From contig JAJYRY010000071.1 in NCBI GenBank assembly GCA_021793855.1, positions 1-5,719 on the forward strand: DNA of 5,719 bases, given 5' to 3'. Origin of the DNA: Thermoplasmata archaeon (GTDB lineage: Archaea; Thermoplasmatota; Thermoplasmata; Thermoplasmatales; GCA-001856825). A program made the translations under genes and the position numbers. Under the pieces are notes generated by a model. It ran no database searches and had not been told where the DNA came from. It worked only from the letters and a program-made list of their open reading frames with translations. This document shows positions 737 to 4,910 of the stretch, in pieces; the stretch's first letter is position 1, and each line of letters starts with the position of its first letter.

Positions 737-2176
737 CTAATAGTAGCTCTCTCCGTAGGGTCCCCTTTCAAAGTTGATCAACTTGACCGGAACGCTATCT
801 ATTTTTCCCATGTCCTTGAAGTAAAAGAGCATCCCCATACTTGCTCTTCCCGAGTCAGCTACTCCGCTTATTATGTCCTTCCTTGAGTTCGTTATGTCTC
901 CACCTGCAAATATACCCGGGAAACTCGTCATGTTGTACTGATTAACTATCAGATCACCAGAAGGAGTCACGTTGATCTTCTTCATCATTTCACGTGGAAT
1001 GAATGAGAAATCTCCCTTCTGACCGGTCGCTTCAATTACGGTGTCGACCTCAACCAAGTATTCTTTATCCTTGATCGGAACCGGTTCCCTTCGTCCCGTT
1101 CCCTTGTCAACCATCTCATTTTTCCAATACTTGATTCCCTTGACTTTTCCATTTTCTCCGACGTACTCGGTGGGTGTCACTTCCCAGATGAATTGGACCC
1201 TCTCCTCCTCTGCCTCATCGAGTTCTTCATTCGCGTTGCTCGATGGATAACCCGGTCTGTCAGTAACAGCCCTCCTGTACATAACTATGACTTTTTTCGC
1301 ACCAAGTCTGAAAGAAATTCTCGCTGCATCGAAAGCGGTGAATCCGCCCCCTATTATAGCAACAGTTTCTCCGACTTCTATCTTCTTTCCATAATTGACT
1401 TGCCCGAGGAAATCTAGGGCATGATATACCCCTTTGAGATCGACTCCCGGCGTGCGGGTCTTTGAGGGCTTCCAGTTTCCAATTGCGATGTAGACTCCAT
1501 TGTACTTTTGCACAAGTTCGTCAAACTGGACATCCCTTCCTATCTTCGTGTTGTAATGTATCTTGGCCCCGTAAGAAAGAACGTGATCCGTTTCCTTCTC
1601 TACAGTATCTCTTGATAGTCTGAAATCGGGGATTCCATGCACCATCATCCCTCCTGGTTTTTCGGTCTGTTCGAAAACATCAACCTGGATTCCATTGATT
1701 GAAAGATAAAATGCAGCGGAAAGACCGGAGGGTCCAGCTCCGATAATTGCAACCCTAGGATGACCTCCGAGGTCACTCTGAACAACGTCCAGCATCTCCC
1801 TGTAATCGGGGGAATTTTCTGAGATAAATCTCTTAATGTGTCTCGTGGCAACCGGTCCATTGTTATCGTCTAGAAGGCAATTGTCTTCGCAGGGATGCGG
1901 ACAGACGCTTCCACACACTCCAACAAAAGGAAGTTTCTCGAAATTGATCTTCAGCCCTTCCGCCAGGTTTCCGTTCTTTACCGCTATCTGGAATCCCGGT
2001 ACGTCGATCCTTGCAGGGCATCCTTCAATACAAAGACCGCATCCAATGCATCTGGATGCTTCGGCAGCGACTTCCTCTATCGTATAAGGTACCAGTGTTT
2101 GAACGTCCAGACTCTTAACTCTGTTGTCTGGATCAAAATGTTTTATAGGTACTCTCGAGTAGTTCACACTGTTCAA
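737..2176 (-). CDS. GltD-like FAD/NAD(P) oxidoreductase with N-terminal 4Fe-4S domain
   Basis: A complete 479-residue protein, the usual length of GltD/NfnL-type proteins. The N-terminal helical domain holds C43, C46, C49, C53 (CIGCGLCIEGCP) and C88, C92, C96, C100 (CGSVCPHPCEDNC), the two iron-sulfur motifs of the dihydropyrimidine dehydrogenase domain II family. An FAD-binding GAGPSG follows at 146-151, then PGGMMVHGIPDFRL (174-187), an NAD(P)-binding GGGFTA at 276-281 with MYRR (299-302) likely holding the NADPH phosphate, IEATGQ (381-386), and the closing flavin motif GIFAGGDI (421-428). Known relatives pass electrons between NAD(P)H and ferredoxin, glutamate synthase large subunit or sulfur compounds. 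No GltB partner is visible, so the electron acceptor is unknown. The start is TTG, supported by GGTGGA five bases upstream; a GTG three codons later would be too far from that site. The first cysteine motif is two residues shorter than the family norm. Confidence 0.9.
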   Translation of the reverse strand: MNSVNYSRVPIKHFDPDNRVKSLDVQTLVPYTIEEVAAEASRCIGCGLCIEGCPARIDVPGFQIAVKNGNLAEGLKINFEKLPFVGVCGSVCPHPCEDNCLLDDNNGPVATRHIKRFISENSPDYREMLDVVQSDLGGHPRVAIIGAGPSGLSAAFYLSINGIQVDVFEQTEKPGGMMVHGIPDFRLSRDTVEKETDHVLSYGAKIHYNTKIGRDVQFDELVQKYNGVYIAIGNWKPSKTRTPGVDLKGVYHALDFLGQVNYGKKIEVGETVAIIGGGFTAFDAARISFRLGAKKVIVMYRRAVTDRPGYPSSNANEELDEAEEERVQFIWEVTPTEYVGENGKVKGIKYWKNEMVDKGTGRREPVPIKDKEYLVEVDTVIEATGQKGDFSFIPREMMKKINVTPSGDLIVNQYNMTSFPGIFAGGDITNSRKDIISGVADSGRASMGMLFYFKDMGKIDSVPVKLINFERGPYGESYY

Positions 2177-2215: not shown

Positions 2216-2250
2216 TGATTATGAGATAGGGTTTAAACTATTACCACCAA

Positions 2251-2267
2251 ATACTGTATGATACTGT
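2251..2267. repeat. ATACTGT direct repeat with nested palindrome, possible operator
   Basis: ATACTGT occurs twice with a 10-base period (2251-2257 and 2261-2267), so the copies lie on the same face of the helix. The first copy extends into the odd palindrome ATAC-T-GTAT (2251-2259). It lies between the GltD-like gene and the TnpB element, about 75-90 bases upstream of the GltD-like start. No regulator can be named, and a chance repeat in AT-rich DNA is possible. Confidence 0.25.
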
Positions 2268-2338
2268 TGAATGATGTGCAATCCTCATTGCTGCGTTTAA
2301 TGGAGAAAATTCATTTTTTCATTTTATTCATTTGGTAG

Positions 2339-2355
2339 AAGGGTACTCAACCCTT
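2339..2355 (+). repeat. Perfect hairpin upstream of tnpB, candidate left-end (LE) hairpin
   Basis: AAGGGT (2339-2344) and ACCCTT (2350-2355) form a perfect 6-bp stem with the 5-base loop ACTCA. It ends 28 bases before the tnpB start and overlaps the candidate TATA box. IS200/IS605 elements lack terminal inverted repeats and instead have subterminal hairpins bound by TnpA, so this fits a left-end hairpin. The left tip cannot be fixed from one copy; TTTAA at 2296-2300 is one possible target motif next to it. Confidence 0.45.
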
Positions 2356-2360
2356 ATATC
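2354..2360 (+). promoter_or_regulatory. TATA box for tnpB, leaderless-type spacing
   Basis: TTATATC lies 24-30 bases before the TTG start codon, the distance at which an archaeal TATA box would start transcription at or very near the first codon. The 3' arm of the upstream hairpin (ACCCTT, 2350-2355) runs into it, so factors binding the hairpin could interfere with TBP. Confidence 0.45.
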
Positions 2361-2383
2361 CAGAAAGAGAGGATATTGAAACA

Positions 2384-3622
2384 TTGGCTCATCCTTGGAA
2401 GTCTTCAGGATCAAAGAGAAGCATATGGTGGTACTACTCTCCATCCGACAACATTCTCCTTTATCTCAGAGACATGAGGGAAGCAACAAGATACGGAGTG
2501 ATGAAATCTTATCTTCACTGGAAGGGTGAAGGAACGATACCTTCTCCAATAGACCTCAGGAGGGAGATGAAGTCATGGTTCGACTCCCGCTACTGTTATG
2601 CGAGGCACCACATCAATCCGGTGTGCAGATCATCCATTGCCATACTCCGCTCATTCAGGAAGAACATGAGGGGGAAGGCATTCCCAGAAGTGAGGAAGCT
2701 ATCGATGAGACTGGACTCAGAGCTGGTCAAGATCGTCGGTGACAGGATAAGGATAACGATCAGGCCAGGTGAATATGAGTTCATCCCAATAAACACCAGG
2801 AATAAAAAGTTCAATGAGTACAGCAGATACAGAATTTCAGAACTTCTCATTACTGACAGGATAGTTTCCATCTCCTTCTCAATTAAGGTCGATAAGGAAA
2901 TATCTTCAGAGACTGTCGGAATGGACATCAATTTCAGTAACATCACTGGAACGGTCATAGACAGCGGCAGGATCACTGGAGTGATCGATATACCCACCAA
3001 TAACATTGTGAGCATACAGAACGACTTCTCACGAAGGAGACAGAAGTTACAGAAGCATCTAAGGAATCCACAGAAGATGAAGAAGAAGCTCAAGCAGACG
3101 AGAGGAAGACAGCAGAACCGCGTGAAAGATGCGATGCACAAGCTGTCCTCATCCCTCATAAAGGAGCATCCAGACTCCTCTTTCATATTGGAAGATTTGA
3201 AGAATATAAGAAGAACATCTGAACCAAAATCGAAGAAGCTCATAACATATCTCAACAGGTGGCCCTATAACCAATTCCAGAAGATGCTTGAATATAAATC
3301 TCATTACAAGACAATATACGTGAATCCAGAAGGGACTTCATCAGAATGTCCCGTATGTGGTGGAAAGGTAAAGCACCCAGCCTGGAAGATATCCAGATGT
3401 GAGAACTGTGGTCGGGACTACGACAGGGACAGGTTAGCCTCGCTGGCTATATCCCTCCGTGGACTTGACCTATGCGGAGACCCGTTCCCCGTGAGTGCGA
3501 TAGCCTCTATACCATCGATGATGGATGAATATCTGTACACCAGAAATCAGCCTGAGATTTCTGGAGCAGATGGGACTGAGATGGCATACGCTTCGAACGA
3601 TGTTATGCACAACAATGCATAA
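2384..3622 (+). CDS. tnpB: TnpB, RNA-guided RuvC-like nuclease of an IS200/IS605 (IS1341-type) element
   Basis: A complete 412-residue protein, typical of TnpB. RuvC-I is VGMDINFSNITG with D181; RuvC-II is FILEDLKNIRR with E270; a zinc finger with C322, C325, C339 and C342 (CPVCGGK ... CENCG) leads into RuvC-III DYDRDRLASLAI, with D349 (or D347) as the last acidic residue. All catalytic positions are kept, and the linker NRWPYNQFQKMLEYKS before the finger is as in the family. A basic, lysine- and arginine-rich stretch (217-246) may contact RNA. TnpB enzymes cut DNA next to a short motif, guided by RNA from the element's right end, and favour retention of the element. The tail after about residue 362 is unlike the family core and is encoded by DNA with strong hairpins, so its sequence is probably set by the overlapping RNA. 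The TTG start is chosen because a stop (TAG, 2336-2338) precedes it, no ATG lies between, and a TATA box is well placed. No tnpA is present. Confidence 0.92.
   Translation: MAHPWKSSGSKRSIWWYYSPSDNILLYLRDMREATRYGVMKSYLHWKGEGTIPSPIDLRREMKSWFDSRYCYARHHINPVCRSSIAILRSFRKNMRGKAFPEVRKLSMRLDSELVKIVGDRIRITIRPGEYEFIPINTRNKKFNEYSRYRISELLITDRIVSISFSIKVDKEISSETVGMDINFSNITGTVIDSGRITGVIDIPTNNIVSIQNDFSRRRQKLQKHLRNPQKMKKKLKQTRGRQQNRVKDAMHKLSSSLIKEHPDSSFILEDLKNIRRTSEPKSKKLITYLNRWPYNQFQKMLEYKSHYKTIYVNPEGTSSECPVCGGKVKHPAWKISRCENCGRDYDRDRLASLAISLRGLDLCGDPFPVSAIASIPSMMDEYLYTRNQPEISGADGTEMAYASNDVMHNNA
3540..3564 (+). repeat. 9-bp perfect inverted repeat inside the tnpB 3' coding end
   Basis: CCAGAAATC at 3540-3548 and GATTTCTGG at 3556-3564 are exact reverse complements separated by AGCCTGA. 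The loop could partly re-pair as TCAG/CTGA. It lies in the codons for the non-conserved C-terminal tail (about residues 386-394), which suggests selection on the RNA rather than the protein. Confidence 0.75.
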
Positions 3623-3624
3623 TG
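3601..3624 (+). repeat. Hairpin spanning the tnpB stop codon
   Basis: TTATGCA (3603-3609) and TGCATAA (3616-3622) pair perfectly around the loop CAACAA, and the flanking TG at each end can add two G-U pairs in RNA. The TAA stop is inside the 3' arm. A competing pairing of GCATA (3584-3588) with TATGC (3604-3608) is possible. Confidence 0.7.
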
Positions 3625-3798
3625 TTTAGAGAACGGTGTCTCTGGACCGATTTACTTTACTCTAGCCTCTCCTGTGGAGTTCAACGAATCTCAAAATATG
3701 CTATCACGAGGTTGCGAGTCAAGTGAGATCAGGAAAGCAAATGATAATGGTCTTTCAACTTCCCACGATTGCCGATAAAATGCGATATTAGATCTCCT

Positions 3799-4583: not shown

Positions 4584-4910
4584 CTATATGCTATCGCGCC
4601 TGAACTCAATTCTTCCTTCCTCAAAAGTGAGAGAATATATGTCGTTCACTTCAAACTTTATGCCAAGTGACTCGTATTCCTCGTCAGATAGCCTCAGAAT
4701 AAGTTTTTGGTTCGGACGAGATTGGATTCCGACGGTTTGGGATATTCCCTTCATCAGGTCATTCACTAAATCTGGACCAAAAGTGAAACTCTGGACGGGA
4801 TGGTCCTTTTCGGTGACATATTCATCCAGGTCAATCTCCCGTCCCCTTGTTCTCGTATCTTGATCGTAATATGATGAAATATTTATGACCATAACCTTCT
4901 TGCTCAGCAT
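4584..4910 (-). CDS. Small conserved-looking protein of unknown function, possibly arcadin-1-like
   Basis: A complete 108-residue acidic protein without signal peptide, membrane segment or cysteines. The N-terminal part reads VMVINISSYYDQDTRTRGRE, a beta strand followed by a D-x-x-T-R-x-x-G turn. The middle (40-70) is variable, and the C-terminal half holds KLILRLSDEEYESLGIKFEV followed by NDIYSLTFEEGRIEFRR, a strand-helix-strand pattern. This layout reminds me of the arcadin-1-type small proteins first noticed beside crenactin in Crenarchaeota, but that is a recollection of pattern, not an alignment, and no actin gene is visible here. The gene has its own promoter: TTATAATATA lies about 25 bases before the ATG, again leaderless. 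An alternative start is M7, where the likeness to the family would begin. QueG lies 63 bases upstream in the same direction but need not be in the same transcript. Confidence 0.7.
   Translation of the reverse strand: MLSKKVMVINISSYYDQDTRTRGREIDLDEYVTEKDHPVQSFTFGPDLVNDLMKGISQTVGIQSRPNQKLILRLSDEEYESLGIKFEVNDIYSLTFEEGRIEFRRDSI

What the first reader, a model, noticed from the sequence alone, without database searches (positions are those of the whole stretch)
3540..3705. Unannotated guide-RNA (omega/reRNA) candidate at the 3' end of tnpB
Seen: four consecutive hairpins (9 bp, 7 bp, 8 pairs with two G-U, 4 bp) within 140 bases, starting in the last 83 bases of tnpB, bridging the stop codon and ending in GGAGTTCAAC. 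Known: TnpB nucleases use an RNA made from the right end of their element, overlapping the tnpB 3' end, with the flank as guide; IS608 is cut on the right at TCAA, which is present here at 3681-3684. Inferred: the scaffold spans about 3540-3684 and the guide begins with CGAATCTCAAAATATGCTAT. The poorly conserved C-terminal tail of the protein coincides with this RNA region.
Basis: partly seen in the sequence, partly recalled or inferred. Interest (0 to 1): 0.75.

Follow-up and report, generated by a model that had tools for sequence, protein, structure and literature searches.

The report
Transposon guide RNA, boundaries corrected
The 3' end of this archaeal transposon gene very probably also encodes a folded guide RNA for its DNA-cutting protein, but the RNA starts and ends at other bases than first proposed, and shortened mobile copies in related genomes keep this RNA region while losing most of the gene.

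Summary
The guide-RNA idea is right; its boundaries and the IS608 analogy are wrong. The window holds a 1.4-kb IS607-type element without tnpA. The conserved RNA scaffold is 3481-3636 (156 nt, 139 of them coding). It has six helices, one closing CCGTTC (3482-3487) onto the terminal GAACGG. Across 15 copies 95% of pair cells are kept and 13 of 42 pairs have changes on both sides. Third codon positions are more conserved in the scaffold (0.77) than in the gene body (0.47), with similar amino-acid identity (0.62, 0.64). The guide therefore begins TGTCTCTGGACCGATTTACT (3637), next to AGGG in the empty site, matching the GGG motif reported for one IS607 TnpB. Relatives carry an IS607 tnpA. Rfam has no match. 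Unexpectedly, 11 of 52 scaffold copies examined, in seven genomes, are miniature elements (244-476 bp): left end, scaffold, little else. One sits in a site that is uninterrupted in two relatives. Expression, cleavage and use of TnpB in trans are untested.

The parts
2228..2231 (+). AGGG at the left junction: target-derived motif (TAM candidate) whose last GG (2230-2231) is the predicted IS607 crossover core
   Evidence: Empty site reads GATAGGG|TGTCTC in L056, L057 and L058. Of 23 copies with a recognised left end 16 have AGGG and 21 NGGG (the scoring matrix was built from 12 of these 23).
2232..3636 (+). Inserted element, 1405 bp net (1407 bp counting both GG cores), without tnpA
   Evidence: Empty sites in three genomes; 360/362 identity of the joined flanks in the closest.
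2384..3622 (+). tnpB, predicted RNA-guided nuclease (412 aa, TTG start), with RuvC-type motifs GMDINFSN (residue 179), FILEDLKN (267), DYDRDRLAS (345) and CPVC/CENC zinc-finger motifs
   Evidence: Pfam PF07282 and PF01385 above cutoff; NCBIfam guided_TnpB 101.3 bits against cutoff 100; sequence relatives among solved structures 8bf8, 8h1j; motif positions. Assignment of the motifs to the RuvC site is recalled.
3481..3636 (+). reRNA/omegaRNA scaffold (156 nt; 139 coding bases, the stop codon and 14 bases beyond)
   Evidence: Alignment of 15 copies, structure with compensatory changes, covariance-model matches in 28 of 400 genomes, fold z -4.31, third-position conservation.
3482..3487 (+). 5' strand of closing helix 1 (CCGTTC), pairs with 3631-3636
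   Evidence: 100% of cells paired in 15 copies, but 5 of 6 pairs never vary; found again in the distant group folded alone.
3495..3504 (+). 5' strand of helix 2, pairs with 3590-3598
   Evidence: 98.3% paired, 2 of 8 pairs with changes on both sides.
3510..3516 (+). 5' strand of helix 3, pairs with 3580-3586
   Evidence: 94.3% paired, 2 of 7 pairs with changes on both sides.
3532..3535 (+). 5' strand of helix 4, pairs with 3567-3570
   Evidence: 95% paired, 1 of 4 pairs with changes on both sides.
3540..3564 (+).
   Evidence: 94.8% paired; 7 of 9 pairs with changes on both sides. Absent in the distant group.
3602..3623 (+).
   Evidence: 90% paired, 1 of 8 pairs with changes on both sides; a hairpin at this place is found again in the distant group.
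3629..3636 (+). Right end GAGAACGG; GG (3635-3636) is the right crossover core; GAACGG is the 3' strand of helix 1
   Evidence: Of 52 model matches 42 end in AACGG, 2 in AATGG, 8 differ; empty site.
3637..3656 (+). Predicted guide, TGTCTCTGGACCGATTTACT (a length of about 16-20 nt is assumed from known TnpBs)
   Evidence: First host bases after the right end; the same bases follow ATAGGG in the three empty sites.

Best explanation
This is an IS607-type transposon without tnpA, inserted between GG and TGTC of an AGGG target. Its tnpB encodes an RNA-guided nuclease, and the last 142 bases of the gene (stop codon included) plus 14 bases beyond form, on the same strand, a 156-nt multi-helix scaffold closed by CCGTTC:GAACGG. 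Host sequence directly after the right end is transcribed as the guide. The TnpB-reRNA complex would recognise AGGG-TGTCTCTGGACC... in chromosomes that lack the element and cut there, so that repair from an occupied copy restores the element. The occupied right junction reads ACGG instead of AGGG, which would spare the element. Shown here: insertion boundaries, scaffold extent, conserved pairing, IS607 kinship. Inferred: transcription, processing, guide length, TAM, cleavage and homing.
For: Empty site in three genomes. 13 distinct copies stop matching at 3636-3637. Alignment of 15 copies: 95.2% of cells paired against 87.6 shuffled, 59 cells with both-side changes against 19.1, covariation score 0.307 against 0.154, none of 500 shuffles reaching any of these three; sliding the partners drops pairing to 31-41%. 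Identical codons given the same amino acid: 710/867 in the scaffold against 3493/6560 in codons 20-312. IS607 TnpA in two relatives tested. AGGG at 16 of 23 left junctions. An IS607 TnpB, ISXfa1, is reported with GG crossover, a GGG TAM and a ~150-nt reRNA (PMC10711439, section 25 and passages).
Against: No RNA data. The 15 copies fall into few clades, so independent compensatory events are fewer than the cell counts. On A2 one measure does not exceed shuffles (further pair types 30 against 31.4) and one does so weakly (13 pairs with both-side changes, reached by 11 of 500). Single-sequence folding does not always find the consensus: helix 1 is in the minimum-energy fold of 14 of 15 copies (not L031), helix 2 in 5 of 15, and the window's own fold has helices 1, 4, 5 and 6 but not 2 and 3. 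The distant group folded alone gives helices 1 and 6 but other inner helices. The protein passes the guided_TnpB cutoff by only 1.3 bits and is far below both the IS607 (30 against 350) and IS200 (56 against 425) TnpB subfamily models. Pseudoknots were not tested.
Confidence: 0.9

Rival explanations
1. The right end is conserved as DNA, as binding sites for the transposase, and the hairpins are recombinase recognition features rather than RNA.
For: The right end should be needed for transposition, and miniature elements keep it. Among the four G001 miniatures the scaffold is not significantly slower-evolving than the middle region (31/157 against 40/160 variable sites, Fisher p = 0.28).
Against: Long-range helices 2 and 3, whose strands lie 85 and 63 nt apart, keep pairing through changes on both sides. 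The closing helix ends exactly at the guide boundary. IS607 elements are said to move as double-stranded circles (PMC10711439, passage), so intrastrand pairing has no obvious use.
Confidence: 0.06
2. IS608/IS605-type element cut at TCAA 3684.
For: TCAA is present at 3681-3684.
Against: In the three empty sites host DNA runs on from 3637 through this place; TCAA itself is kept in the closest genome (L056) but reads TCGA in L058 and CCGA in L057. No related copy matches past 3637. Relatives have an IS607 transposase.
Confidence: 0.01
3. Decayed element whose tnpB 3' end merely looks structured.
For: The window copy lacks tnpA. Many scaffold matches elsewhere are fragments.
Against: Open 412-aa frame with RuvC-type motifs; 41 of 42 pairs intact; third-position conservation across nine genes.
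Confidence: 0.03

Closest known systems
IS607 TnpB/reRNA of ISXfa1 (PMC10711439; section 25 and passages read)
   Same: IS607 serine recombinase in the family, GG crossover, GGG flank next to the target, ~150-nt RNA running past the right end.
   Different: This one is archaeal; I did not compare the two scaffolds; TAM and cleavage are not measured here; the window copy has no tnpA.
RAGATH-18 reRNA with IS607 TnpBs (PMC11061315; passages read)
   Same: IS607 TnpB, guide at the right end, G-rich TAMs (AGGAG in 18 of 22 strains, GAGGG in 4 of 22, as that paper reports).
   Different: That paper calls its reRNA totally independent of the coding sequence; here 139 of 156 scaffold bases are coding. 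No Rfam match at E up to 1.
Haloarchaeal sotRNA/omegaRNA of IS200/IS605 (RF02656, RF02657; PMC12558985, passages read)
   Same: Archaeal sense RNA overlapping tnpB.
   Different: IS200/IS605 elements; no Rfam match here.
PATEs of Haloquadratum (PMC3119063, passages read)
   Same: Transposase-free short elements, some derived by core deletion, no target duplication; comparable to the miniature elements found here.
   Different: IS605-type ends and near-terminal palindromes; the passages I read mention no guide RNA.

Membership tests
IS607 transposon | Serine-recombinase TnpA with MerR-type helix-turn-helix | tested here: met
   Met in relatives with the same ends, not in the window copy: L029 and L036 match NF033518 above cutoff and Pfam Resolvase plus MerR. 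The window copy has no tnpA.
IS607 transposon | Insertion at a GG core without target duplication | tested here: met
   Met for the window element. For miniature L107 the site is uninterrupted in two relatives, but their core bases differ (AAGG, AAAG), so the core cannot be confirmed there.
IS200/IS605 (IS608-like) | Right end cut at TCAA 3684 | tested here: not met
   Element ends at 3636.
TnpB reRNA/omegaRNA | Conserved structure at the element's right end, same strand as tnpB, ending where the guide begins | tested here: met
TnpB reRNA/omegaRNA | RNA expressed and bound to TnpB | not testable with these tools
   No expression data.
TnpB RNA-guided nuclease | RuvC D-E-D motifs and zinc finger | tested here: met
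   Motifs present; Pfam and NCBIfam matches. Residue roles are assigned by motif from recall; no structure was modelled.
RAGATH-18 or sotRNA (Rfam) | Match to the family's covariance model | tested here: not met
   No Rfam match with E up to 1 in the window.

The most novel reading that the evidence does not exclude
The miniature elements are mobile guide-RNA genes: left end plus scaffold, 244-476 bp, with no nuclease or transposase of their own, each taking up a new guide on insertion and lending it to TnpB made elsewhere in the cell. They would be satellites that home by borrowed RNA-guided cutting.
Probability: 0.3. Interest if true: 0.7.

Novelty: new member of a known kind. Interest (0 to 1): 0.5.

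Why it matters
It gives an exactly bounded guide RNA for an archaeal IS607-type TnpB, with a predicted guide, TAM and natural target (the empty site of sister genomes), so activity can be tested at once. The scaffold is both protein-coding and RNA-structural. The miniature elements raise a testable question: can guide RNAs spread as mobile units apart from their nuclease?

Tried and rejected
Rejected: IS608/TCAA boundary; Rfam membership; viral carriage (one stretch matched a pattern, none encodes a relative); plasmid carriage (no DNA match).

Inconclusive: slower evolution of the scaffold in the four G001 miniatures (31/157 against 40/160 variable sites, p = 0.28; the pair L012-L013 shows 9/157 against 34/160, the pair L010-L011 23/157 against 19/161). 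No second empty site for the full element L029: all 10 genomes searched matched mainly the last ~80 bases of its 1000-bp flank, a stretch present many times per genome.

Grouping note: I placed L007 with copies cut by a contig end; by its coordinates it is a truncated copy inside a contig. Counts in the report are corrected: of 52 matches, 17 with full or nearly full tnpB (L035 and L090 with broken frames), 11 miniature, 10 cut by a contig end, 14 without a recognised left end.

Full report
What is there. The window carries tnpB at 2384-3622 (412 aa), matching Pfam Cas12f1-like_TNB and OrfB_IS605 and just passing the NCBIfam guided_TnpB cutoff. In whole genomes, 27 of 400 drawn from the class of G001 match at E up to 1e-30. 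G001 is Thermoplasmata archaeon LSA5.bin55. No genome of the window's own organism is held.

Where the element ends. No blastn match of a related copy runs past window 3637; 13 distinct copies stop at 3636-3637, and more diverged ones stop earlier (L031 and L033 at 3597, L051 at 3580, others at 3497 or 3538). By inspection, the bases after GAGAACGG differ from copy to copy, except L031 and L033, whose flanks resemble each other. Neighbour genes led to the same locus in other genomes (14 of 400 carry the TPR-protein neighbour). All 11 of those loci that I compared lack the element. In the three closest (93-96% TPR-protein identity; G352, G242, G224) the junction can be read...GATTATGAGATAGGG|TGTCTCTGGACC..., aligned to the joined window flanks with 360/362 (L056), 346/362 (L058) and 343/362 (L057) identities; in the other eight the intergenic stretch is too diverged. 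The inserted DNA is 2232-3636, with GG at both junctions and no other duplication.

What family. Relatives with the same ends (L029, L034, L032, L035, L036) encode an upstream resolvase-like protein; the two tested match NF033518 IS607 transposase, 186 and 181 bits against 110, and Pfam Resolvase plus MerR. The window copy, L001 and L006 lack tnpA but keep both ends. Left ends begin at [A/T]GGG followed by (C/T)TTTAAC or a variant; 23 copies have a recognised left end: 16 AGGG, 4 TGGG, 1 GGGG, 1 AGAG, 1 AGGA. The scoring matrix was built from 12 of these, so the tally is partly self-selected; the empty site of the window copy is independent.

The RNA. Fifteen right ends aligned by MAFFT without structure information give an RNAalifold consensus of 39 pairs, 12 with changes on both sides. 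My 42-pair version was counted: 95.2% of 630 cells paired (shuffles 87.6), 13 pairs and 59 cells with changes on both sides (shuffles 9.2 and 19.1), covariation score 0.307 (shuffles 0.154); sliding partners by 1-3 columns drops pairing to 31-41%. The number of pair types does not exceed shuffles (30 against 31.4), and 11 of 500 shuffles reach 13 pairs. As single sequences, L001 and L013 fold into all six helices; helix 1 is in the minimum-energy fold of 14 of 15 copies, helix 2 in 5 of 15; the window's own has helices 1, 4, 5 and 6. The distant group of eight copies (proteins 42-52% identical over the longest matched stretch), aligned and folded alone, again gives helix 1 and a hairpin at helix 6, but other inner helices. 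All 52 model matches together give 88.5% paired against 74.7 shuffled and 33 of 42 pairs with both-side changes; that alignment was fitted to the model and leans towards it.

Coding and structure together. Among nine full-length genes (36 pairs), codons 367-407 have amino-acid identity 0.62, third-position identity 0.77 and 710/867 identical codons where the amino acid is the same. Codons 20-312 have 0.64, 0.47 and 3493/6560; codons 313-366 have 0.84, 0.66 and 1065/1601. Pairs are not independent, so the Fisher value is only indicative.

How it most likely works. By analogy with characterised TnpBs (PMC10278001, abstract and passages: TnpB processes its own mRNA into guide RNA; PMC10711439, section 25 and passages: ISXfa1), the reRNA is cut from the 3' end of the tnpB transcript and TnpB cuts chromosomes with the empty site. 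The 5' flank of that target is ATAGGG, and ISXfa1 is reported to need GGG. At the occupied right end the base before GG is C, so the guide sequence there is not preceded by GGG. This protection is an inference.

Miniature elements. The covariance model gave 55 matches in 28 of 400 genomes (strict filters, which lose weak matches). I examined 51 of these plus the window: 17 have full or nearly full tnpB (12 of them with a recognised left end), 11 are miniature elements with both ends, 10 are cut by contig ends and 14 have no recognised left end. The miniatures (core-to-core length) are L010 and L011 (476), L013 (475), L012 (458) in G001; L078 (475) in G292; L079 and L098 (380) in G077; L081 (398) in G180; L105 (327) in G084; L107 (319) in G105; L103 (244) in G002. 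Where TnpB homology resumes differs between genomes (codon 313 in G001, 361 in G292, about 308 in G077, 329 in G180), so they probably arose several times. Each matches the model from position 1 to 156, but L103, L105 and L107 lack all or most of helix 5, as the distant full-length group does. Pairs kept: G001 copies 39-42 of 42; the others 26-38, with 4-8 broken and up to 11 gapped; L078 has a changed right end. L107's site is uninterrupted in G184 and G388 (4 of 8 genomes searched had the flank). G105 has three open IS607 tnpA genes and three tnpB copies. G077 and G180 have only distant or broken partners; in G001 and G292 only a fragment of tnpA was found and in G002 none. Whether the miniatures make functional guides is untested; keeping the right end for transposition may explain them.

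Novelty. Searches of the paper library: IS607 with TnpB and guide RNA (18 papers), TnpB with archaea and IS1341, TnpB with IStron, TnpB with MITE and guide RNA, PATE or TnpB (411 papers, 15 listed), TnpB with non-autonomous and reRNA, Thermoplasmatales with TnpB (none), IS607 with MITE and archaea. Beyond listings I saw passages of PMC11061315, PMC12558985, PMC3119063 and PMC3852290, section 25 and passages of PMC10711439, abstract and passages of PMC10278001, and a term search without hits in PMC11043419. In these I saw no description of this scaffold or of guide-bearing IS607 miniatures in Thermoplasmata. The library lacks many subscription papers, including work on IStrons and TnpB homing that I only recall, so this is not proof of absence.

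Noticed in passing
L010, L011, L012, L013, L078, L079, L098, L081, L105, L107, L103: Miniature IS607-type elements of 244-476 bp made of left end plus guide-RNA scaffold, in seven genomes, with TnpB homology resuming at different codons.
   Followed up: partly
L031 and L033, bases after 2745: Right flanks of two full tnpB copies in different genomes (G220, G361) look alike by eye, so this may be one inherited insertion whose left end is no longer recognisable although tnpB stays open: a candidate for a nuclease kept after mobility was lost.
   Followed up: no
window 4584-4910 (-): 108-aa protein matching Pfam Arcadin_1 (E 4.2e-10), a partner of archaeal actin (recalled).
   Followed up: no
L056-L066: In all 11 loci compared, the gene left of the insertion (window 737-2176) lies beside the TPR-protein gene as in the window, so the neighbourhood is conserved.
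   Followed up: no
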